NCBI GenBank assembly: GCA_947172415.1 | Contig: OX359191.1 | Span: 9,250,996 to 9,314,995 of the forward strand | Reading direction: 5' to 3' | DNA from: Chondrosia reniformis | Taxonomy: Eukaryota; Porifera; Demospongiae; Chondrillida; Chondrillidae | Length of the DNA stretch: 64,000 nucleotides | Shown here: piece by piece, positions 2,277-53,800 of the stretch | Layout of the letters: the number at the start of each line of letters is the position of its first letter | How positions within the stretch are numbered: the stretch's first letter is position 1 | Notes under the pieces: model-generated | What the model was told of the DNA's origin: nothing | What the model saw: only the letters and a program-made list of their open reading frames with translations | Databases searched by the model: none | Translations under genes and position numbers: made by a program

Positions 2277-3000
2277 ATGCTGCCTCTCTCACGAATCTTG
2301 AGACCTTTAAGTAAGTGATTTTGTGTTACCAAAATAACTTTTCGTTCGTATTTACATCGTGCTCACTCGCTCCATAGGGAATTTTGCGTACAATAAGTAT
2401 TTAAACGGCTTTATACACACAGAAACAAGTACAGAACTTTTAGATAGTTACAAGTGGTCATTAGGACTACACAGCAACCGATTGGCACTTCCAAATGAAA
2501 ATTCAAAATGGCAGGAGAACATGATGCAACGACTCCTCTCTCAGCCTTCTTCACATCTAACGGAGAACAAGTCGTTTCATACTTTGTTCAATGACCAGGA
2601 GATCTCACAAAGGAAGGTTAGTTAGGAACTCGCTGCTCAAAGTGTATGCATTTAATAACCAGTTTCTGTGGTATGCTTATAGGTTGTTGTAACTTACTGG
2701 AACTGTCATTGTAGTTTGAATAGTTGTAATGTTACTATAATATTATTATGTTTTTAATATGCTATCAATACATTCTTCCACTTTTGTACTGTTTCTCTTC
2801 ATTTGCAGTTTTTATATTGCAGTGGTATGCTAGACTCTTCTAGTGCTAATGCCATGGTTGAGCCAGCTTGGGAACCCAGCGGCCATTTAATTTGGTTAAG
2901 TAGTGTTGTGAAGAAGAGAAGGAAGAAAATGAACAAGCACAAACATCGTAAGAGGTGGAGGAAGAACAAGCACATTAGAAGAAAACACGGACGAGCTTAA
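2277..3000 (+). CDS. AURKAIP1: AURKAIP1 / mitochondrial small-subunit protein mS38
   Basis: Exons 2277-2310, 2378-2616 and 2809-3000 keep frame and encode 154 residues. The last ~35 residues are extremely basic (KKRRKKMNKHKHRKRWRKNK and onward), the hallmark of the mS38/AURKAIP1 C-terminal domain (DUF1713), a mitochondrial ribosomal small-subunit protein. The N-terminus (MLPLSRILRPLRNFAYNKY) is rich in Arg and hydrophobic residues without acidic ones, as expected of a mitochondrial presequence. I chose the ATG at 2277 because an upstream ATG at 2254 hits a stop after splicing in exon 2. The second donor is GTTAGT. A polyadenylation signal AATAAA lies at 3107-3112. The middle of the protein is poorly conserved, so identity rests mainly on the C-terminus and overall design. 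Confidence 0.82.
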
Positions 3001-3449
3001 TTGTGAATACATGTTATTGTTATTTGTACGTCGCAACTTCCATTTAAGAGTAAAACTTTTGGTACAACTTATCTTATTCTATATACAATTATAATGAAGT
3101 TGAATTAATAAAACTGGAAAATAAGACTGCATGCATTGCTTGAAGGAAGGTGTATATTGATAGGTACAAGAACTTGATCATTTGGTGGGACTAGTATCAA
3201 ATGAGTATGATTTAACATATATACGTATTAGCCAGGAGAAGAATACGTATATTTTAACCTTACATAGCTGTCCTGACTCAATCGAATTACTTTTATAACC
3301 CATCCCTACTTCAGCATCACATACATTATGAGCCTCAGAGTATGCACAACAATCGTTGGTTTGGTATATTTGAATCATTACTACATGTACAATGCAAACA
3401 AGTGAAAATGTCTGATATTCCGTAACTATACACTTTCCAAAATAAATGT
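3001..3449. other. Convergent 3' flanks of AURKAIP1 and LZIC
   Basis: AT-rich sequence between two converging genes. It contains the AATAAA of AURKAIP1 (3107-3112). A 91-codon minus-strand frame here is not supported by composition or similarity. Confidence 0.7.
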
Positions 3450-4877
<1,428 letters not shown>

Positions 4878-30600: not shown

Positions 30601-33600
30601 TAAACAATATGGCAGACCTCTTCAGATAAAGGCTAACCGGTTGAGACTTGTTGAGTGCAATCGCTGTCCCAACTTGTAAATGCAGTATCCACTGATGTCG
30701 TATATCATCGCTATCAGCTTGCAGAGTGACAGACCTGGGGGAGGTGACACAGTGGTAACCATGGTAACAACAATACCTATCCTACAATGACATACTTGTC
30801 TGGCATTACCAAGTTGAAACAGAATCTCCTTTCAATGTCATCCATTGGCTTGACTGTGCACAGCCTCAGATCTGATGTCACTATAGTTGGATCATCCTGC
30901 AACAACAGAAGTGGAAACAGAAAGTTATTAGTGCAAATGCAAACGGAGATCAGATTTGAATTCAACAGTAGCAAGCTTCACAACATTTCCTACAGGTGCG
31001 GCTGGGAGATGTTACAGGAATTATTTTATAGCTTCCTGCTATATACGTATAATAGAGTACATCAATTATAGGGAATTCCCCTAGAATGAGCTCACCACAG
31101 CCTTCTTGATGTAGGTCAGTTTGTTATCCTTTAGTATGAAGTAGCGTCTGTGCCACGTCTTGAAGGCATTCTTTGTTCTTTTAAACAAATACCCTTTAAA
31201 CTCCAAGTTACTGTTTAAAAAGGAATTACAAGGCATTATTACAGATATTGCGTAACCAATATTGCGTAACCAACAAGCAGGAGACAACATGGCTGAGGAG
31301 GTGACACAATGCCTAAACTGAAAGTAATTCAATCAACATATTAGTAAAGCAAATAAATAAATTATTCTCCCAAAGGACTTAGCCTCTATTCAACAAGTAG
31401 GCACAAAGGTCACAGATATCGTGATCACAGGCTTGTAATGCAGACACTTACTGGCCGATCCCCTCCACGGGGGACTGGGGCCGTTCGTGGCTACCTTCCG
31501 CAAGGTCCACCTTTGAGAGATTATAAAATTCACTTCTCAATGCATCAAGCCGTTCCTCACAGCTCCGAGACAACTTGGAACTCTCCTCCTTCATGTCCTT
31601 GCGGATGGAGCCCATCCCTTTGACCAGGTCGTTGCCTTGGTCAAAGAAGGTGTAGATGGCTTGCACAAACACCAGGAGCTGGAGAGGGCAGACAAGGTCA
31701 GGCCAGGAGCGGAATGGTTAGAGTGAGTGCAAGGATTTCTTACTCTGTCCAGTATTTCATGTCCCTTTGTCAGTTGTATCTCATCAATTTGCATCGAGTA
31801 GACGAGAGCGGACTTGGTAAAGACCACCTGGGCAGACTGGAGAGAAGCGGCAGTGTCCTCTGCACCCTGTGGCTTGCTGCGAAGCACTTGGGAGTTTCTG
31901 TGTATTGCTCTGCAGTGGAGGGATGTGATAAAAGGATGTGGCAGAGGGTGTGGCAGAGGGCGTGGCAGAGGGCGTGGCGGAGGGTGTGGCAGATGAATAT
32001 TAAATTTCACTTCTAATACAAAGCTATAGGACACTTGAGCACATTCTTTAGTGCTTGGAGCTACTATTCAAGGTAACCTTAGAAGGTGTTGTTCTTATTG
32101 GTCATAATTACTCAAAGAAATGTAGCATGTCCACTGCACACCTGAACCGAGGCCAGGTCTCAGGTCAACTGAAGCTACAGTGTCTGTCGCTTTACAACTC
32201 ACAGCTCAAGTAGTTCACTATTCTTTTCAAAATTCTTTTTGGCTTCCTTTAATACTTTAAAATCACTACAGCAAATTGACAAAGTTTCTCAAGCGACAAA
32301 ACTAAATCAACTCTGCCTTTGGTTACCGTTGAAGGAAGTTCTTCAAACTCTCTTGAATGTTCTCCTTCATACGGTCAAACAAGGTCTGATAAAACTGTTT
32401 AATTTCCAACATCATCTGACATGCCTTCAGGCAGTTATTCTAACACATGAGAAGAACAGATTAATCTCCACTTTATCAAACATTTAACAAGAAGGGCTGC
32501 ACTTGACAGGTTTGCAAGCCAGTGATATCTGCCAGGAACCCAACAATGTGTGGAAGCCTTCAGACACAACTTATGCAAAAGGATCCATCAGCTGTCCCAC
32601 CTACTACAAGACCATACATGCTGCTTCCATGGCAACTGCTTCCATGGCAACATATTTCCCACGTGAATGTTGAATAGGCACAACCTTAACTAGTTAACTC
32701 ACAGCAATGTTTCCGTAGCCAATAAAGTTCTCAGCCATGTCTCTCAGAGAGTGTCCAAAGGCTTCGCATGAGGAGGAGAAGGTCTGTCCAGCCTCAATCA
32801 TAGTCCCAGACACTGTCACAACCTACCAGGGGAACACACACTGTCACAACCTACCAGGGGACACACATTGTCACAACCTACCAGGGGAACACACTGTCAC
32901 AACCTACCAGGGGAACACACATTGTCACAACCTACCAGGGGAACACACACTGTCACAACCTACCAGGGGAACACACATTGTCACAACCTACCAGGGGAAC
33001 ACACATTGTCACAACCTACCAGGGGAACACACACTGTCACAACCTACCAGGGGAACACACACTGTCACAACCTACCAGGGGAACACACACTGTCACAACC
33101 TACCAGGGGAACACACACTGTCACAACCTACCAGGGGAACACACATTGTCACAACCTACCAGGGGAACACACATTGTCACAATGAAACAGTACATTGCAC
33201 ACACAATTACATATCTATTTGAATGAGAACTTGTGAGAAGTATTGAAATCTGATAAGACATTCCATGAGTTCTGGTTACACTGACAGTCTCTTATCAAGT
33301 GAAGTTGTAAACATGCGATGGTCACTTTAAATGAAACCCTAATAATATATAATGTCATTTGGAACATTTCCACTATACAGTTCATAAACGGGGCTACGTA
33401 GCTAAATATTCCAAGCTCTACTCTGTCACCCATCCTACCTCCTCAATGAGGTAAGGGACAGTATAAGAACATACTGAATTAGTCTTCAAAACAAATAGCT
33501 TTCTAGAATTTCTCTAAATACACATCTCTTTCAGTGTGCATTCACATTAATGAATAGAGGTACATTCAAGTGGTCTCTTCTCTCAATGTGTGCACAGCCC

Positions 33601-38900: not shown

Positions 38901-40709
38901 GCAGAGATACTCTGACACTGACATTCAAGTGAACATCATTGGAGCACTCCAGAAACTCAGTCTTCGGTAGTTACCTCTTCCCAGTCATGCCCCTTCAACC
39001 AACTGATTGTTCTCTCTGCTATAGGAGACAAATGCAGTTGGAGATGATTCAAAATGGCCTGGTGGCATGGCTGATTGAAATGCTGTCGGGTGACCACGCA
39101 GAGCTACTGTCAGACTACTCGTTTCACTATGCTCTGGCACTCTTGATGAATCTCTCTCTGAGAAGTGAAGGTAGCCCTCCCACCTCTCTCTCTCAGTTGC
39201 CCTCCCACCTCTCTCTCTCAGTAGCCCTCCCACCTCTCTCCCTCAGAAGCCCTCCCACCTCTCTCTCTCAGTAGCCCTCCCACCTCTCTCCCTCAGTAGC
39301 CCTCCCACCTCTCTCCCTCAGTAGCCCTCCCACCTCTCTCCCTCAGTAGCCCTCCCACCTCTCTCCCTCAGTAGCCCTCCCACCTCTCTCCCTCAGTAGC
39401 CCTCCCACCTCTCTCTCTCAGTAGCCCTCCCACCTCTCTCTCTCAGTAGCCCTCCCACCTCTCTCCCTCAGTAGCCCTCTCACCTCTCTCCCTCAGTAGC
39501 CCTCCCACCTCTCTCTCTCAGTAGCCCTCCCACCTCTCTCTCTCAATCCAGGTCGGCAGGCTTGTGTAAGCCACTCGACGCTGCTGCTGAAGTTGTTGGG
39601 TGACCTGATGGAACACGACAGTCAGGAGATCAGGTCCTATGTCAACGGTATCCTCTATAGTATTCTCAATGTACCAGCCATTCGGACAGAAGCTGTTGCA
39701 ATGGTACAGCATGTGTCTTCTATTCTAGTAACTACTGATCATCCAAACTCTCTCTAATTGGCCAATGTTAGGGCATTGGGAGTATGTTGGATTCAGCAGT
39801 TCTCTCTAGTCCCCCAGAGTTGGTGAGTCAGCTGAAGTACATCATAGAGCAGCTGAAGGGGAGTGCTGGTGCAGAGGAGGGTGTGGCACTCAAGGAGGAA
39901 CTGAGTGAGGAGGAGGACAGTGAGGAGGTTAGGGCAGACCAGATGGATTGGTCTGATGTGATGAGAGCTAGTACTGTACCTCTGTAGGAGGACCCCGATG
40001 TTATTGATGGAGATGATGGAGAGGCGGACCCAACAGGAAGTGGCTCGACAGGAAGTGGCCCAACAGGAAGTGGCTCGACAGGAAGTGGCCCAACAGGAAG
40101 TGGCTCGACAGGAAGTGGCCCGATAGGAAGTGGCCCAATAGGGGAACAGCTGCTCATGCAGCACTATCTTGGGGTCATGGCATCATTTGATGGTTTCCAT
40201 GGTAATGTGGTACAAAAGGTAATAAACCTCATATCAATAAATTTAGATGCTTATTGAGTGTTTGCCTGTTGCCATAGTTACAGGGAAGGCCCATATCAAG
40301 ACCAGTCACACCTCAATCTTTTACCATCAAACCTCAAGCCCACTCAATTCAGTAAGTAGTTGGATGCCATATAAGGAGAATATTGTGGGGATTGTGCAAT
40401 AGGTTGGCTTGTCCAAAGTACACTTTTGTAACTGTACATACACTATTTCCTTACCATTAGCATAGCAAATGTAATGTTTACGTTTCTAGTTGACACAATT
40501 CTTCTCTCTCTTCCCTCTTGCAATGTCATTAAAGGGCAGACACTCAGCAGCCATTTGTTTCCAGACCTATGATCCCAAGAACGCCAGTGGAGCAGACCCA
40601 ATTGCACAACTCCCACCTCCCACCTCCCCCCACACCCTCCGATTCACCACCCACCACCATCAATCACCGCCCACCAACTCGTAGTGGAAGACCATTATCC
40701 ATAAAATGA
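35910..40709 (+). CDS. ARMC9: ARMC9, LisH and armadillo-repeat ciliary protein
   Basis: Seventeen exons keep phase: 35910-35957, 36050-36157, 36325-36495, 36813-36956, 37273-37441, 37514-37638, 37700-37786, 38014-38175, 38237-38335, 38403-38493, 38840-38966, 39025-39170, 39552-39703, 39772-39927, 39988-40218, 40278-40351, 40535-40709; 754 residues. The N-terminal LisH motif ([14 protein letters not shown]) is followed by ARMC9-specific blocks ([34 protein letters not shown]) and armadillo repeats ([35 protein letters not shown]). In vertebrates ARMC9 acts at the ciliary base and is linked to Joubert syndrome. An acidic region is followed by an in-frame Gly-Ser-Thr-Pro repeat in exon 15. Exon 5's donor (ACTG|GTGCAG) is the least certain junction. 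Confidence 0.96.
36517..36787. repeat. Pyrimidine minisatellite in ARMC9 intron 3
   Basis: About 16 copies of cccctttccccgcccct with c/a variation. They form a long polypyrimidine tract ending about 25 bases before the acceptor at 36811-36812. Confidence 0.92.
37830..38010. repeat. Repeat in ARMC9 intron 7
   Basis: Three to four irregular copies of tatacaggatgttatgtgtg plus gttacagtgtatgttgctcc. The last copy blends into the exon 8 acceptor (gttgctgtatgcag). Confidence 0.8.
38688..38806. repeat. 13-15 bp repeat in ARMC9 intron 10
   Basis: About eight copies of tgtgctataacat or tgtgctatataacat. Confidence 0.9.
39171..39548 (+). repeat. 25-bp array forming all of ARMC9 intron 12
   Basis: About 15 copies of a 25-bp unit that begins gtagccctcccacctc and ends ctctccctca. 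The first unit starts exactly at the donor (GAAG|GTAGCC) and every unit boundary reads ctctccctcag|tagcc. Each unit therefore has its own GT start, pyrimidine tract and AG end. Only the final stretch (tctctcaatccag) is used as acceptor in the model. Confidence 0.95.
40033..40140 (+). repeat. Coding minisatellite in ARMC9 exon 15
   Basis: Seven to eight copies of ggaagtggcccaaca or ggaagtggctcgaca (15 bp) stay in frame and encode a (GSGPT / GSGST)n linker. Unlike the intronic arrays, the 15-bp period preserves the reading frame. Confidence 0.93.
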
Positions 40710-41934: not shown

Positions 41935-42007
41935 GTCCCTGTAGCGCAATGGATAGCGCGCTGGACTTCTAATCCAGAGGTTGTGGGTTCGAGTCCCACC
42001 AGGGATG
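41935..42007 (+). tRNA. tRNA-Arg, anticodon TCT
   Basis: A 73-nt cloverleaf without intron. The acceptor stem pairs GTCCCTG with CAGGGAT (first pair G-T) and the discriminator base is G. The D arm is GCGC/GCGC, the anticodon stem CTGGA/TCCAG with TCT at 41968-41970, and the T arm is TGGGT/ACCCA around TTCGAGT. Internal A and B boxes (TAGCGCAATGG; GGTTCGAGTCC) are canonical for RNA polymerase III. The downstream TTTTTT run at 42009-42014 (gcttttttc) is a Pol III terminator. It decodes AGA codons. Confidence 0.97.
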
Positions 42008-42109
42008 CTTTTTTCTTTTTCCTCTCTCCCAACTGGGCGAAAATAGTAAATAGAGCTGAGTCATGACAATTCATCATTTTAGCGTATCCAACAGTCTGAG
42101 AAGCAGAAC

Positions 42110-44851: not shown

Positions 44852-47800
44852 ATGTCTGCAGACATGGAAACTTCACCAGCTCCTCTCGGAACATCGATCA
44901 GAGAGAAGGAAACGCCTCGTTTGATGATCATAAAAATTGTTTGTGAGAATTTCAAATCTTACGCGGGTACAAAGACCCTGGGACCATTTCACAAAGTGAG
45001 TGCATCGTCCTCTCTAATTATAACTCTAATTAGCACTCACTAAGGACCGACAGAGACGGGAGTTTGGACTGCTAGATCCACAGCGAGGCAGTCGTGCATG
45101 CAACATCAGATTCTCCGTTGCGCCTCCCTTTTCATATAAGTAGGCGTGTGTGTGTTGAGATTGTATGTTCTCTATCTCTTGTATGTCAGTGTTTCACTTC
45201 AATTGTCGGACCAAACGGAAGCGGAAAGTCAAATGTCATCGATTCCATGCTTTTTGTGTTCGGCTACCGCGCCGCCAAGATACGGTCCAAAAAGGTGTCA
45301 GTACTGATCCACAAGTCTGACAAGTTTAGGGACCTCAAACAGTGCTCCGTTAGTGTCCACTTTCAGCAGATCATTGACAATGTAAGGAATGCGCGTGTGC
45401 CTTGCTCTCCAGACCGATTCGATCACGTGCGACTCTCTTCTATAACTAGGAGGACCCGGACGGATATTCGGTTGTACCAGACAGCAACTTTGTAGTGTCG
45501 CGGACTGCCTTCAGTGATAACTCTTCTCACTACCACCTGAATGGGAAGAGGGTACAGTTCAAAGAGATAGGCGCACTCCTGCGCCAGTCAGGAATTGATC
45601 TAGACCATAATCGATTTCTAATTCTTCAAGTCAGTAATTAAATTAAAACTCCACCCATTAGGGTAATTATTAACTGTGCTACCCCTCCCTCCTAGGGTGA
45701 GGTAGAGCAGATTGCTCTTGTTAGTATTAACTGCTACCCCTCCCTCCTAGGGTGAGGTAGAGCAGATTGCTCTTGTTAGTATTAACTGCTACCCCTCCCC
45801 CCTAGGGTGAGGTAGAGCAGATTGCTCTTGTTAACTGTGCTACCCCTCCCCCCTAGGGTGAGGTAGAGCAGATTGCTTTTGTTAACTGTGCTACCCCTCC
45901 CCCCTAGGGTGAGGTAGAGCAGATTGCTCTTGTTAATATTAATTGTGCTACCCCTCCCTCCTAGGGTGAGGTAGAGCAGATTCCTCTTGTTAATATTAAC
46001 TGCTACCCCTCCCTCCTAGGGTGAGGTAGAGCAGATTCCTCTTGTTAATATTAACTGCTACCCCTCCCTCCTAGGGTGAGGTAGAGCAGATTCCTCTTGT
46101 TAATATTAACTGCTACCCCTCCCCCCTAGGGTGAGGTAGAGCAGATTGCTCTTGTTAATATTAACTGTGCTACCCCTCCCTCCTAGGGTGAGGTAGAGCA
46201 GATTGCTCTTGTTAACTGTGCTACCCCTCCCCCCTAGGGTGAGGTAGAGCAGATTCCTCTTGTTAATATTAACTGCTACCCCTCCCTCCTAGGGTGAGGT
46301 AGAGCAGATTGCTCTTGTTAACTGTGCTACCCCTCCCCCCTAGGGTGAGGTAGAGCAGATTGCTCTTGTTAGTATTAACTGCTACCCCTCCCTCCTAGGG
46401 TGAGGTAGAGCAGATTGCTCTTGTTAATATTAACTGTGCTACCCCTCCCCCCTAGGGTGAGGTAGAGCAGATTGCTCTTGTTAATATTAACTGTGCTACC
46501 CCTCCCTCCTAGGGTGAGGTAGAGCAGATTGCTCTTGTTAATATTAACTGTGCTACCCCTCCCCCCTAGGGTGAGGTAGAGCAGATTGCTCTTGTTAATA
46601 TTAACTGTGCTACCCCTCCCTCCTAGGGTGAGGTAGAGCAGATTGCTCTTATGAAACCAAAAGGTCAAAGTGAAAGTGATGAAGGTATGCTCGAGTTCCT
46701 TGAAGACATAATTGGATCAAGTAGACTGAAGGAGCCAATAGAGGAACTGAGTAAAAGAGTTGATCAGTTAAATGAAGCTCGCGGGGAAAAGGTAAGTCAA
46801 TCTTGTTTTGCATGATTTTGTTGAAGAAGACATTATTGTCTTGCAGCTGAATCGTGTGAAAGTGGTTGAAGGAGAGAGAAATGAACTGGAAACAGCTAAA
46901 CTTGAGGCAGAAGAGTACTTGGCAATGCAAAAGGACATTGCAACGAAGCAGCGCAGTCTTTACCAGAAATACATGTAAGCATGCAGACAAGTACCAGCAC
47001 TACTAACAGAATGTGTCCCCAGCACTACTAACAGAATGTGTCCCCAGCACCTACTTATATTCATAGCTGTTTGCGTACGTATATTCCTATTATTCCTGTA
47101 GTGCTGAGTGCAAGGTCATTGAGGCAGAGGCAAGTGAAAAGAAGAGCGAATATGATGAGCAGATCGGATCTGTAAAATCAGAGTTGGATGATATCAAAGG
47201 TTGGCAGTGAGTGAGCCACAGGCTGTTATGTCACTTGTGTTGTACTGTATCCACTAGAGCAGTGCAAAGGAAGAGAGACAGCGTTGAAGAAGAGAATTAA
47301 GTGAGTATCCAACATTTTACTAAAGTCTTGCGCTGTCCCAGTACCTTCCACTGGCCACACTTGACAGGGACCACGAACGTCTGGTGGAGGAGATTGAAGC
47401 CTGTAAAGCGGCCTTCCAGTCCTGCGAACAGAGAGATGTCAAGGCTAGACAGGTGAAGAGTTGTTGCTTAGCAACCAGCTGACACATGTAAACACTGCAC
47501 TTTATATTGATACAGGAGCTAAAGAATGGTAAGGCAAGTTTGAAGAAGGTAGAAAAAAGTTTGGAAAAGGAGAAAGAAAAAGTGAGTCCTTATGAGCTGT
47601 TGAGATGAGAGACCCCAACTGGTGTGTGGTGCGAGATGACTTGTGTGTATGTTTGTACGTAGTTGGAAGAATTGGAAAAGGTTCCTGAAAGATGCGCAAA
47701 GGAAATTGAAGAGAAACAAAACAGCCTGGAAATACTGGAGGTGTGTAGAGTAGGTGTGGATTCTGTTGCCATGGTAACACATATGTGCTAACATTAGGTA

Positions 47801-50800
47801 AAGAAGATCAAAGAGGACAAACTTCTCTCGGAAGTGTTGGCAAGTAAGAGCAGGGATTGTCTCCAGTGTTCTATCTGCTCTACCCTCTCTGAAATACAGG
47901 TCTTCGTAACGCCACTCAGGGGCTGCAGGAAGAGAAGGAGAAATATGAAAACGAACTTATTGGTCTCAACCAGACTGTAAATACAGCAAAGTCTAAAGTA
48001 GGTCCAGTTGCATTGCTCGAGTGGAACAGATGTGATGTGATGTGGTTCTGCAGTTGGATATTGCTCAGGCTGAACTGGACCTATTCAGGAATAAGGCAAA
48101 TGCTACTGCAACACAGTTGAAGGAGGCGGAGCAGAAACTGACTGAAACTAAAGAAACAAGAACAGCTAGAGAGAAGTGAGAATTGCTAGGATACTGTTGC
48201 CATGGTAACCTCATTTGTGTTGTTCCCAGAGAGCACAAGCACTTGGGAGAGGCTATTCCTGTCAAGAGGAGAGAGTTGGAGAAGAACCAGGAGCTCCTGA
48301 GGTCTCTCAACACTACTGAAGCAAAGCTAATGGGACAAGTGAAGACTGCACGCCGTCAATTGGAGGAGGGGAGGAGTTCACTTGAAGCATTCAAGACAAG
48401 GTTTGAAGGCTGGTGCAGAGATAACCTCTGGTGTCTAACTGTAGTTGCCTCTTGCACAGAGGAAGGGTGCTGCAGGGTCTCCTTCAGCAGAGGGACAAGG
48501 GGGAAATCCCTGGAATATTTGGTCGCCTAGGAGACCTTGGGACAATTGATGACAAGTATGATGTCGCTATTAGTACAGCTTGCGGAGCTTTAGACAATAT
48601 TGTTGTGGATACCATGGAAACGGCAGTCAAGTGCGTTCAGTTTCTCAAGGCTGGTGATATTGGGTCTGCCACCTTCATTGGGCTGGACAAAATGGAGCAC
48701 CTCAGAGGGGCTATGGGCAGGAGACTAGCTGTGTTAGTTGAGAGTGTGATGTCTGTGGCAGGATGGTGGAGTGTGATAGATGGGTGTCTTCTGTAGACCT
48801 GAGAGGGTGCCTCGACTGTTTGACTTGGTGAAGGCAAGTGACAAGAAGTTTGAGACAGCCTTCTACTACGCCCTTCGAGATACTCTTGTAGTGGACGACC
48901 TCAATCAGGCTACAAGAATAGCTCTTCAGGTAGGTTGTCATGACACTGATTGGATAGATAGGCAGCCCCGCCCCCTTGTGGAAGGAGCCCCACCCCTCAT
49001 ACACATCCCCACTTCCACAGGGCAAGACTCGACACCGAGTGGTGACCCTGGGAGGCCAGCTAATTGATCAATCAGGAACAATGAGCGGAGGGGGAAACAG
49101 AGTTGTGAAAGGTTAGACCATCTCAACTGCCAGTACCTCAACATGTGGTAATGTGTAAATACCTTTTAGGTCGAATGAGCTCCAAAATGATAGCTGAAGT
49201 TAGTCCTCAGCAAGTCCAGGATCTGAACAATCGCTTGGCAGAGAATGAGAAAGCATTAAAGGTGATTGGTGCTGATTTTCTTTAGCTGACGTGACCTTCT
49301 TGTGTTGGTGTACATACGTACGTGTGTAGGAGTGCGGGGAACACAGGCTTTCTGTTGAGACCAAGGTTAATGAGTTATCAAAGGAATTGACTGAAATGGA
49401 GAAGGAGTTTAAAAAGTGTGCAGTAGATGCAAATGTAAGATCTCTAGACTGATCCACTAGACCGCCTGATCCACTAGACCGCCTGATCCACTAGACTGCC
49501 TGATCCACTAGACCGCCTGATCCACTAGACCGCCTGATCCACTAGACCGCCTGATCCACTAGACTGCCTGATCCACTAGACTGCCTGATCCACTAGACTG
49601 CCTGATCCACTAGACCGCCTGATCCACTAGACCACCTGATCCACTAGACTGCCTGATCCACTAGACTGCCTGATCCACTAGACTGCCTGATCCACTAGAC
49701 TGCCTGATCCACTAGACCGCCTGATCCACTAGACCGCCTGATCCACTAGACTGCCTGATCCACTAGACTGCCTGATCCACTAGACCGCCTGATCCACTAG
49801 ACCACCTGATCCACTAGACTGCCTGATCCACTAGACTGCCTGATCCACTAGACCGCCTGATCCACTAGACCGCCTGATCCACTAGACCACCTGATCCACT
49901 AGACATGTCTCTTGTAGCTACTGGTGGAACAGGAGGAGACGATTGCTAGTAGAATAGCAGAACTGAGAGAAGCTGTGAAACTTGTTAGAGTTGACAAGTC
50001 GGCTCTGAAGAGGTTGGAAGAGACAGTGGCAATGTTTGAGAAGGAGTACAGCAGTGCCGATAGAGCTGCCAGTGTTGTGCAGGACAAAGCTAAAAAGTTA
50101 GATCGTACATGTATAGAGGACTGAGCCATGTCTAGTGTGACACACATTTCAGGGTACACGACGAGATTATGGAGGTTGGTGGTTCACGAGTAAAGAGACA
50201 GCAGGAGAAGGTGGATGCTATCTCCATAGAGATGGACCAATATTCAAATGCCATCACCAAGGCAACCGTAAATATAAAGACTGCCGAGAGGTAAATGCAC
50301 ATTTATGCCAAACAATTTGGAGTGTACTTTTGTGTCTCTGGTACAGGAATGCAGACAAGACGAGGAAGAAGATTGCAAGCCAGGAGAGTGAGGTTGCTAC
50401 CATTAAGGAGAAGATGACAAGCTGCCACAAGGAACTGGTGGACCTCGAGCAAGAGGCAAAGACTGCTGCTGAGCAGCAAGAACAATTAACTGTTAGTACC
50501 AGCCTTAACCCACCCCTGCCCCACCCCCTGACCCTATTCCTCCACCGCCCCACCCCCTGACACTATTCCTCCCCTGTCCCACCCCCTGGTCCCATTCCTC
50601 CACTGCCCCACCCCCTGACACTATTCCTCCCCTGTCCCACCCCCTGACACTATTCCTCCCCTGCCCCTCCCCCTGACACTATTCCTCCCCTGTCCCACCC
50701 CCTGACACTATTCCTCCCCTGCCCCACCCCCTGACACTATTCCTCCCCTGCCCCTCCCCCTGACACTATGCCTCCCCTGCCCCACCCCCTGACACTATTC

Positions 50801-53800
50801 CTCCCCTGCCCCTTCCCCTGGTCCAGGCAAAAGCCAAAGAAGAAGAAGAGGAATTGTTAAAGGAAAAGGCTACAATTGAAGGAGGAAGTGATCAGAGGAT
50901 GGAACTGGAGAGCAAATTGCTTGACCTCAAACATGCTCAAGAGAAGTACTCTGCAGCTGTCAGAGATAACCAACAAAAGATCAAACATTTCAACTCTAAA
51001 GTACGTAATGTACGAGAGTGTCACATTTGTGAGTGTCATGCTATGTGGTGTGGGAGGGTACAATGTATGAGGTATGGGAGGGTACAGTGTATGAGGTATG
51101 GGAGGGTACAGTGTATGAGGTATGGGAGGGTACAGTGTATGAGGTATGGGAGGGTACAGTGTATGAGGTATGGGAGGGTACAGTGTATGAGGTATGGGAG
51201 GGTACAGTGTATGAGGTATGGGAGGGTACAATGTATGAGGTATGGGAGGGTACAGTGTATGAGGTATGGGAGGGTACAATGTATGAGGTATGGGAGGGTA
51301 CAATGTATGAGGTATGGGAGGGTACAATGTATGTGGTATGGGAGGGTACAATGTATGAGGTATGGGAGGGTACAATGTATGTGGTATGGGAGGGTACAAT
51401 GTATGAGGTGTGATGTGGAGAGTGTCCACTGTGTCTGTGTAGATAGCAAAGCTGCAGCTGAAGGAGGAAGATGTGGAACTGTCACCAGAAGAGCTGAGTC
51501 AGCTGGACAAAAAGTCTGTTGAGGTTAGTTAAATAAACAAATAATCATTGCGGGTCAAATAAATTACACTGACTGTAATCAATTACCAAAGTCAAAGTTA
51601 CCAGTCATCCAATGATTGGAGAGTGACTGTCTCTCTCTGTGTGCGTGTAGTATGCTATTACTGTTTTGGAGGAGAAGCTGAAACAGATGACTCCTAATAT
51701 GGCCGCTATTGAGGAGTACAAACGCAAGGAGGAGCTATACCAGCAGAAGATGTCAGATCTGGTGCAGATCACTTCTGACAGGGATGATGCAAGGAGAGAG
51801 TTTGATGACATTAGGAAGCAGAGATTGGATGAGTTTATGGCTGGGTTCAGTGTGATAACTAGCAAGCTCAAAGAGATGTATCAGGTGAGAAGTCACTCTA
51901 ATGTATGATCTCACCTTCCTGCCACACCCCTGCCACACCCCTGCCACGCCCCTTAGATGATAACACTGGGTGGAGATGCTGAGCTAGAGTTAGTGGACAG
52001 TTTAGATCCATTTTCTGAAGGCATTGTGTTCAGGTGAGTTTGTGACCTCGTTAAGATGCTTGTGTTGACATTGTGTGCATTCCATTGTCAATGAATAAAC
52101 TGTTGCTTAGCAACAAATATACTAATCAACAGCTGCCAGGAGCAGCATTTGTCAGCAGTGGACCTGATGATAGCATTCTGTCGTTGTAACATTCAGCTCC
52201 ACCCTACATAGTTGGGAGGGCTGTGATGAGTGCTGAGGTAGTATAGTTGGGAGGGCTGTGATGAGTGCTGAGGTAGTATAGTTGGGAGGGCTGTGATGAG
52301 TGCTGAGGTAGTATAGTTGGGAGGGCTGTGATGAGTGCTGAGGTAGTATAGTTGGGAGGGCTGTGATGAGTGCTGAGGTAGTATAGTTGGGAGGGCTGTG
52401 ATGAGTGCTGAGGTAGTATAGTTGGGGGGGCTGTGATGAGTGCTGAGGTAGTGTAGTTGGGAGGGCTGTGATGAAGTGTCTGTGTCAGTGGGACCTTTTT
52501 CATTTCGCGCAAGTCACAAGGGTTGTGTCTGTTTTGTAGTGTTCGTCCTCCCAAGAAGAGTTGGAAGAACATTTCAAATCTCTCGGGAGGTGAAAAGACA
52601 CTTAGTTCACTGGCCTTGGTATGTAGAAACCAGTTATGTTGTTGTGTGAGCATGTGATTAGGGTAGTCAGTGTCTAAGTAGACATGGTTAATTGTTCAAT
52701 TACTGATCATTTTCATTGAATTAACAATCAAAAGTGTTAAAAATTGCAATAAATTGTGTTTCTCCATTTGCACACATAAGAAGTGCCCCTCCTTTAGTGT
52801 ATTGTGATGAGATTAATCCTCACTTTCCACTTTGTTTCTCCTCACTTTCCACTTTGTTTCTCCTCACTTTCCACTTTGTTTCTAGGTGTTTGCTCTGCAC
52901 CACTACAAGCCCTCCCCCCTCTACGTGATGGACGAGATTGATGCAGCACTGGACTTTAGGAATGTCTCCATCATTGCTCACTATATAAAGGTACATGCAT
53001 GCATCAGCGATGAAGAGGTATTTGTAAGTGGTAGTCTGAAGTGTGGTATAGATCACTTAGTTGTGTAATTCATGTTTGGAATGATTAGAGGAGGACAGTA
53101 TACCTAATTCACTGGTGTGTTTAATGGGACACTTTATGGCTTCTAATAACATAATTCAATCACTCTCACTTTATAATGGGGAGCAAGAGGGCCTCAGGTC
53201 AGGTGTCTGAGCAAGTGTGCTAGCTATGTATCCTATTCCAGCTGAGGAGTATTGTCTTGATTGCTCTGGCTGTGAGATGGAGGAGGATTTCAGGTCAACT
53301 TGTGTAAACTTGTGAAAACTCTGATTTCTCAATCAATTCCTGTTTAACTGATGACATGTGAACTGCATTTATATAATAGCTAGCTTGTATTGATACAAGA
53401 TTGCTATGATCACTGAGTGTTAGAGTTGTCACATTCCATTGATGCTTGAATGCACTTACAATTCTTTGCATGTTTAATTACAAACAAGAGGTATTTAGAA
53501 TATCCACTCACTCAGTGTCTGTGTGCACTTAACCACAATCTTACCATGCGAGGTTCCACAGGGTCTCTAGTGCAGGTACCATTGGTATAATTATGTGCCA
53601 TCTTGAGTAAGCAGTTTGATGTAATAGGTATGTTTTTATGACCTAACTGCAATGGAAATTGGAATTCAATCTCTTCCATATATGGTTAATTGCTCTAATA
53701 AGATGATAGCCTTTCTAGCTCATCCATAGAAACCATAGTCTCTAGTGTGACACTCCCAGCCTCTAGTATCCAATCAGGACTTGTGTGACAGCCAATCACA

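What the first reader, a model, noticed from the sequence alone, without database searches (positions are those of the whole stretch)
45665..46650. SMC4 intron 3 is an array of 17 potential in-frame microexons
Each unit reproduces the exon 4 acceptor and the first eight codons (GEVEQIAL), then GTTAAT or GTTAGT, which resembles the GTTAG donors this genome uses often. A unit spliced in would add exactly 24 bases, so SMC4 could gain one or more eight-residue copies next to the ATPase head without a frameshift. The copied coding part never loses frame although the spacers vary in length. That SMC4 includes such copies is inference; the array may instead be neutral decoys that the last acceptor always outcompetes.
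Basis: partly seen in the sequence, partly recalled or inferred. Interest (0 to 1): 0.92.

Follow-up and report, generated by a model that had tools for sequence, protein, structure and literature searches.

The report
Sponge SMC4 splice-boundary minisatellite ("mirage")
In a kidney sponge's SMC4 gene, a minisatellite has copied the junction between an intron and the next exon 17 extra times; this kind of array is known from amphioxus, it recurs in neighbouring sponge genes, and it is more likely a by-product of repeat turnover than a set of working tiny exons.

Summary
The array is real. SMC4 intron 3 of the sponge Chondrosia reniformis holds 17 extra copies of its own 3' splice site plus the first 24 coding bases of exon 4; the 18th copy is the genuine one. 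The microexon reading is only partly supported. All 18 acceptors outscore the gene's 26 others, but only 3 of 17 units (1, 2, 13) have a credible donor (GTTAGT); 10 have GTTAAT and 4 GTTAAC, and GTTAA starts none of the gene's 27 modelled introns. Introns between neighbouring units would be 27-33 nt; SMC4's shortest is 54. Reading on from any upstream acceptor meets a stop after 16-19 codons.

Two other genes in the window carry such arrays: ACAP-like (13 acceptors, period 26-28 nt) and LZIC-like (6 donors). The ACAP array leaves no room for cassette exons. The closest described thing is the amphioxus "mirage", reported not to disturb splicing. Best reading: a recurrent splice-boundary minisatellite, mostly skipped, with possible leakage at units 1, 2 and 13. 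No transcript data could be examined.

The parts
45450..45629 (+). SMC4 exon 3, ending ...RFLILQ (phase 0)
   Evidence: gapless across the exon 3/4 junction in all 5 PDB SMC4 alignments displayed (3 of the 5 nearly identical to each other)
45630..45635 (+). exon 3 donor GTCAGT
   Evidence: score 4.15
45630..46626 (+). SMC4 intron 3, 997 nt
45668..46650 (+). minisatellite array of 18 copies of the intron-3 3' end plus 24 nt of exon 4 (unit 51-57 nt)
45696..45719 (+). unit 1 copy of the exon 4 start; acceptor 66 nt from the exon 3 donor; donor-like GTTAGT follows
45751..45774 (+). unit 2 copy, followed by GTTAGT
46344..46367 (+). unit 13 copy, followed by GTTAGT
46627..46791 (+). genuine exon 4 (165 nt, [12 protein letters not shown]...), followed by a strong donor AAG|GTAAGT
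32810..33182 (-). second splice-boundary array: ACAP-like BAR gene, 13 acceptors each followed by a copied exon start (13 exonic nt inside the array at the last copy); the genuine exon starts at + 32822 reading leftwards
4139..4353 (-). third splice-boundary array: LZIC-like gene, 6 copies of the last 12 exonic nt plus donor GTGAGT, unit 35-36 nt; the first copy is taken as the exon's own end
44852..52990 (+). SMC4 gene as modelled, 27 introns (3' end beyond 52990 not modelled); 8 of 27 introns (3, 5, 19, 22, 23, 25, 26, 27) hold tandem arrays of TRF score 50 or more

Best explanation
The array is a splice-boundary minisatellite of the kind called a 'mirage' in amphioxus. A segment running from near the branch-point-like motif of intron 3 through the polypyrimidine tract and AG into the first 24 nt of exon 4 was tandemly duplicated, then expanded and shuffled by ordinary minisatellite turnover to 18 copies (shown: anatomy and variants; inferred: history). 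In most transcripts exon 3 is joined to the last acceptor. That copy alone is followed by a definable exon (165 nt with a near-consensus donor), while the upstream copies are followed after 24 nt by a weak donor in 14 of 17 units (inferred consequence). Use of an upstream acceptor without a second splice gives a stop codon after 16-19 codons (shown by translation), so leakage would mainly cost mRNA. Units 1, 2 and 13 could occasionally be spliced in as a 24-nt exon adding GEVEQIAL after the Q-loop glutamine (inferred). The phenomenon recurs in this genome and is not specific to SMC4 (shown for two more genes in the window).
For: 18 of 18 exact genome-wide copies of the core lie in the array. 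Same class of array in two further genes of the window: an ACAP-like gene, whose junction is fixed by phase 0/0 and by a BAR_3 match of 108 residues to 108 profile positions (72.5 bits for the spliced piece against 35.2 for the downstream part alone), and an LZIC-like gene. The ACAP array (period 26-28 nt) cannot form cassette exons. Tandem arrays are general in these introns: 8 of 27 SMC4 introns. Donors after the 24-mer are weak in 14 of 17 units. Introns between neighbouring units would be 27-33 nt against a minimum of 54 in 27 SMC4 introns. No sign of coding constraint on the copies: both variable coding sites change the amino acid. Amphioxus mirages duplicate 3' or 5' boundaries, and Adh3 data and globin RT-PCR are reported to suggest no interference with regular splicing (PMC3087553 section 16; PMC3902484, one passage).
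Against: No transcript evidence was available, so 'mostly skipped' is inference. All 17 upstream acceptors score the same as or slightly better than the genuine one, and above the 26 other acceptors of the gene (6.58-6.73 against a leave-one-out maximum of 6.36). Unit 1 sits 66 nt from the donor, a typical intron length here, so a proximity rule would favour it. Units 1 and 2, the two nearest to exon 3, are among the three with a good donor. One base into every copy lies another donor-like site (AGG|GTGAGG, 4.62), which with the next acceptor would give introns of 50-56 nt, so other unwanted products are conceivable. The splice-site model rests on 26 hand-chosen introns of one gene. Length instability, a typical mirage property, was not tested. 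Introns under 54 nt are not excluded genome-wide: an unmasked gene-finder run listed predicted introns down to 21 nt, which I judge artefacts, several of them in tandem repeats; with repeats masked, 3 of 45 predicted introns were under 50 nt, the shortest 42.
Confidence: 0.8

Rival explanations
1. Facultative microexons: unit 1, 2 or 13 (GTTAGT donors) is regularly spliced in, giving SMC4 isoforms with one, or a few non-adjacent, GEVEQIAL insertions after the Q-loop glutamine.
For: Frame is kept (24 nt, phase 0/0). GTTAGT starts 3 of 27 SMC4 introns and GTTAG 5 of 27. Unit 1 is 66 nt from the donor; skipping one unit gives introns of 78-90 nt, within the gene's range. Acceptors are very strong.
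Against: 14 of 17 units have poor donors; neighbouring units would need 27-33-nt introns; the exon is only 24 nt, short for ordinary exon definition (general knowledge). The insertion point, right after the Q-loop glutamine (motif identity recalled), shows no gap between the sponge protein and the 5 PDB SMC4 sequences displayed. Amphioxus mirages are reported not to disturb splicing. No selection signature in the copies.
Confidence: 0.12
2. Regulatory poison acceptors: the array diverts a fraction of SMC4 transcripts to upstream acceptors that lead to premature stops, setting mRNA level by copy number.
For: 17 of 17 upstream acceptors lead to a stop after 16-19 codons when read through; acceptors are as strong as the genuine one.
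Against: Almost any retained intron sequence would also contain stops. The ACAP-like array shows the same property in 12 of 12 upstream copies, which points to a generic by-product. No expression data.
Confidence: 0.1
3. RNA-structure looping: self-complementary units fold the array into a compact structure that hides upstream acceptors and brings the last acceptor near the exon 3 donor.
For: The polypyrimidine tract can pair with the first bases of exon 4; the intron folds at -383.5 kcal/mol against a mean of -302.85 for 20 shuffles (z -9.49); two stretches at the array's 3' end, 46513-46650 and 46500-46626, give z -3.57 and -4.20.
Against: The genuine acceptor with exon 4 forms the same hairpin, so masking does not discriminate (46594-46700: z -1.38, 16 of 200 shuffles fold as well); the stretch with the first unit is not special either (45630-45750: z -1.22, 18 of 200). 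Shuffles destroy the tandem repeats, so a low z is expected for any array of a self-complementary unit.
Confidence: 0.05
4. Assembly artefact.
For: Repeats can be mis-assembled; the draft version of one amphioxus mirage was judged aberrantly assembled (PMC3087553, legend of an additional file).
Against: The array is about 1 kb with interspersed unit variants, in an assembly of primary consensus quality 69.8 (PMC12181767). Two more arrays of the kind lie in other genes. Raw reads were not seen.
Confidence: 0.03

Closest known systems
[quoted passage not shown] PMC3087553, PMC3902484)
   Same: Tandem units contain a splice site plus adjoining exonic bases of the same gene; the genuine boundary is one end of the array; 3' and 5' boundaries are both affected; splice signals are repeated; several genes of one genome are hit.
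   Different: A sponge instead of a cephalochordate; 18 copies of a 51-57-nt unit here against 6 and 3 units of 150-160 bp in two BflGb6 haplotypes (Adh3 units 10-72 bp). Normal splicing and length instability are reported for amphioxus and untested here.
Intron gain by tandem genomic duplication (e.g. the potato RdRp case, PMC4974935; search listing and start of abstract only; the AGGT mechanism is recalled)
   Same: A tandem duplication creates extra donor/acceptor pairs within a gene.
   Different: No new intron position in the mature gene is shown; the duplicated segment straddles an existing 3' splice site and the array stays inside one intron.
Animal microexons (cassette exons of a few to about 27 nt; recalled)
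   Same: 24-nt in-frame segment between an acceptor and a GT.
   Different: No evidence of inclusion; most donors poor; 17 near-identical copies; spacing between neighbours too short by this gene's standards.
Tandem acceptors (NAGNAG and alternative 3' splice sites; recalled)
   Same: Several competing acceptors for one exon.
   Different: The copies repeat the whole 3' splice region and 24 nt of exon, spread over about 930 nt.

Membership tests
mirage (splice-boundary minisatellite) | tandem repeat array inside a gene | tested here: met
mirage (splice-boundary minisatellite) | each unit spans an exon-intron boundary, with exonic bases of the same gene | tested here: met
   18 of 18 copies hold the acceptor plus 24 nt matching the exon 4 start (0-1 differences)
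mirage (splice-boundary minisatellite) | genuine boundary lies at the array end | tested here: met
   copy 18 runs into exon 4; frame and homology fix it
mirage (splice-boundary minisatellite) | regular splicing not disturbed | not testable with these tools
   no transcript data
mirage (splice-boundary minisatellite) | copy number varies between haplotypes | not testable with these tools
   the alternate haplotype GCA_947172445.1 exists but was not available here
mirage (splice-boundary minisatellite) | recurs in several genes of the genome | tested here: met
   3 genes in the window; none accepted in the 25 other sampled 10-kb regions, with low sensitivity and with lower-ranked rows not followed up
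microexon | short exon shown in mRNA | not testable with these tools
   no transcript data
microexon | functional donor next to the exon | tested here: inconclusive
   by score, 3 of 17 units within the range of real donors, 14 of 17 poor
microexon | flanking introns of spliceable length | tested here: inconclusive
   exon 3 to unit 1 (66 nt) and skip-one joins (78-90 nt) are within range; joins of neighbouring units (27-33 nt) are not
intron gain by tandem genomic duplication | new intron at a new position in the mature gene | tested here: not met
   the mature junction Q|G matches the displayed SMC4 relatives without insertion; the array lies within one intron

The most novel reading that the evidence does not exclude
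SMC4 of this sponge is a length-polymorphic protein: units 1, 2 and 13, and with weaker donors others in non-adjacent combinations, are really spliced in, so individuals or cells differ in the number of GEVEQIAL copies after the Q-loop glutamine of the condensin ATPase head, and copy number changes by minisatellite mutation.
Probability: 0.06. Interest if true: 0.85.

Novelty: new member of a known kind. Interest (0 to 1): 0.42.

Why it matters
It appears to extend splice-boundary minisatellites from amphioxus to a sponge and shows three of them in one 64-kb stretch, so the process may be common in minisatellite-rich animal genomes. The SMC4 array is a natural competition test: 18 nearly identical acceptors with nearly the same first 24 exonic bases, of which only the last leads into a definable exon. 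RNA reads over it would show directly how strongly exon definition overrides proximity. Such arrays are also proposed as raw material for new introns and exons (PMC3087553).

Tried and rejected
Gene finder: trained on SMC4 it recovered 24 of 27 introns but over-predicted (312 introns on one strand of the window). Self-training drifted (SMC4 introns recovered among confident ones fell from 17 to 2 over six rounds) and listed introns down to 21 nt, several in tandem repeats, so I dropped it. With repeats masked the last round gave 45 introns, shortest 42, 3 of 45 under 50 nt, one of them a version of SMC4 intron 15 that differs from my hand model; only 8 to 10 SMC4 introns were among its confident ones. 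I used none of these for the intron-length argument, which rests on the 27 hand-modelled SMC4 introns.

Boundary-array screen: rejected after reading the sequence were L026 minus (SCO1-like by recall, not searched; array intronic, likely acceptor about 40 nt beyond its end), L012 (no gene recognised by eye, not searched), the SMC4 intron 23 donor side (the modelled donor lies 40 nt before the array), and L029 (BUD13-like by recall; in-frame exonic 42-nt repeat). ARMC9-like (window 39171-39545) and snurportin-like (L028) arrays reach or nearly reach the ends of their intron but copy at most about 4 exonic bases, so I do not count them. The other, lower-ranked rows were not followed up (one, near window 37826, was only printed), so 3 is a lower bound. 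Arrays screened: 87 under strict and 120 under loose criteria in 264 kb, 18 in a further 50 kb.

For the ACAP-like gene a second possible acceptor (GACAG, score 2.16, 10 nt further on) was considered and rejected because its phase does not fit the upstream exon.

An origin of the GTTAAT junction by hairpin copying (GTTAATATTAAC is a palindrome) was considered; derivation from the intronic GTAATT upstream of unit 1 (2 mismatches of 6, by eye) is as simple, so I leave it open.

Structure prediction was not run: the spliced protein is not read letter for letter from the DNA. The PF00118 search was meant to enlarge the intron set; its loci could not be cut out and I made no use of its rows. Papers opened but not used: PMC2812944 (outline only), PMC6142364 (passages only). 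Literature searches that gave nothing further on this point.

Full report
What it is in. The window lies at G000:C3:9250996-9314995 in a 117,379,552-base assembly of 15 contigs, with C3 of 9,415,654 bases. This matches the kidney sponge Chondrosia reniformis, odChoReni1.1: 117.37 Mb, 14 chromosomes plus mitochondrion, chromosome 3 of 9.42 Mb (PMC12181767; outline and sections 7, 10 and 16 read). The identification rests on these sizes.

The gene. Exons on the + strand from 44852 match SMC4 chains in the PDB (best 9f5w_B, E down to 1.7e-68). A hand model with 27 introns, boundaries chosen by frame and homology, reads 3,522 nt without a stop; the last exons after 52990 were not modelled. The exon 3/4 junction, [16 protein letters not shown], aligns without gap in the five PDB SMC4 alignments displayed, three of which are nearly identical sequences. 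The glutamine is, from general knowledge, the Q-loop residue of the SMC ATPase head.

The array. Intron 3 (45630-46626, 997 nt) holds 17 copies of CTACCCCTCCC(T/C)CCTAG plus 24 nt like the exon 4 start, and the genuine exon 4 carries the 18th. Core and spacer motif occur nowhere else in the genome by exact match. Of the 17 upstream copies 12 encode GEVEQIAL, 4 GEVEQIPL and 1 GEVEQIAF. After the 24-mer come GTTAAT (10), GTTAAC (4) or GTTAGT (3: units 1, 2, 13). Spacers are 27, 31 or 33 nt.

Could the units be exons? I scored splice sites with matrices from the other 26 SMC4 introns. Acceptors: 6.58-6.73 in all 18 copies, above the other 26 acceptors of the gene in leave-one-out (maximum 6.36). 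Donors: GTTAGT 3.57 (above 4 of 26), GTTAAT 0.97 (above 1 of 26; 70th percentile of all GTs in 200 kb), GTTAAC -0.5 to -1.5 (below all 26). GTTAG starts 5 of 27 SMC4 introns, GTTAA none. A further donor-like site, AGG|GTGAGG, lies one base into each copy and scores 4.62, better than any donor after the 24-mer; with the next acceptor it would give introns of 50-56 nt. Joining neighbouring units at the 24-mer would need introns of 27-33 nt; SMC4 introns are 54-997 nt with a median of 68. Exon 3 to unit 1 is 66 nt and joins that skip a unit are 78-90 nt, so single or non-adjacent inclusion is mechanically possible. Without a second splice, 17 of 17 upstream acceptors run into a stop after 16-19 codons.

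Is the coding part constrained? Two of 24 coding sites vary, both changing the amino acid, against 5 variant types in about 33 spacer positions counted by eye on the alignment (Fisher p = 0.69). With only two types of length variant in all, their absence from the coding part means little. A copied length divisible by three has a prior chance of one in three; the other two arrays copy 13 and 12 exonic nt.

Same thing elsewhere. A screen of tandem arrays against coding flanks found two more splice-boundary arrays in this window. (1) Minus strand, 32810-33182: 13 copies of CCCCTGGTAG|GTTGTGACA..., period 26-28 nt. The previous exon ends VEK|GTTCGT and the next reads [13 protein letters not shown] in phase 0; the joined protein matches Pfam BAR_3 over 108 residues to 108 profile positions (72.5 bits), and resembles ACAP (recalled human sequence). 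The 12 upstream copies all lead to stops when read through, and the short period leaves no room for a cassette exon. (2) Minus strand, 4139-4353: 6 copies of AGGTGGCAGCTG|GTGAGT (AGGTGACAGCTG in two), i.e. the exon's last 12 nt plus donor. The next exon reads [10 protein letters not shown]; the joined protein has an ICAT domain match downstream of, not across, the junction and resembles LZIC (recalled). Eight of 27 SMC4 introns hold tandem arrays, and ARMC9-like and snurportin-like introns consist almost wholly of an array. In the 25 other sampled 10-kb regions no further splice-boundary array was accepted; the screen is insensitive because exons there were not annotated and lower-ranked rows were not all followed up.

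Comparison with the literature. [quoted passage not shown] The authors state that Adh3 data and globin RT-PCR suggest regular splicing is not disturbed, that the two BflGb6 haplotypes differ in copy number, and that mirages may seed new introns (PMC3087553; passages and section 16 in full). PMC3902484 (one passage) adds Adh, troponin C and the imperfect repeats of PGBD5. The SMC4 array meets the anatomical features; splicing and instability are untested. I found no report in sponges with searches (0 papers; 5 listed, by title and abstract start; 1, the PGBD5 paper); that library lacks most subscription journals, and the original Adh report was not read.

Conclusion. Its best reading is a sponge mirage: a repeat-turnover product that swallowed a splice boundary, tolerated because the last acceptor alone opens a definable exon (165 nt with donor AAG|GTAAGT, score 8.22, itself one of the 26 training introns). 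What speaks against easy dismissal is that the decoys are as strong as the genuine acceptor, that the nearest lies at a typical intron distance, and that units 1 and 2 have usable donors. Existing RNA-seq would settle this; I could not see any.

Noticed in passing
window 32810-33182, minus strand: ACAP-like BAR gene: 13 tandem copies of an exon's acceptor plus exon start, a second splice-boundary array.
   Followed up: yes
window 4139-4353, minus strand: LZIC-like gene: 6 tandem copies of an exon end plus donor GTGAGT; the first three copies are 36 nt apart and in frame without stop, so donor 2 or 3 would add 12 or 24 residues.
   Followed up: partly
window 39171-39545: ARMC9-like gene: an intron made almost wholly of 15 copies of a 25-nt unit starting at the donor; units carry acceptor-like TCTCTCTCAG or TCTCCCTCAG, while the frame-consistent acceptor ATCCAG lies just past the array.
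   Followed up: partly
L028 minus 2888-3875: Snurportin-like gene: intron filled by 45 copies of a 22-nt unit that repeats a donor-like GTGTGTG and a C-rich tract.
   Followed up: partly
window 46605-46641 and the matching stretch of the other units: The polypyrimidine tract and AG can pair with the first bases of exon 4, and GTTAATATTAAC is a perfect palindrome, so the unit is largely self-complementary; possibly related to repeat birth.
   Followed up: partly
L014, L015, L017 (C3 2.70, 3.20, 4.20 Mb): 55-88% of these 10-kb samples is tandem repeat, perhaps a satellite-rich region of chromosome 3.
   Followed up: no
L029 3013-3530: BUD13-like (by recall) exon with an in-frame 42-nt coding repeat of about 12 copies.
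   Followed up: no
window 41935-42008: tRNA-Arg(TCT) gene.
   Followed up: no
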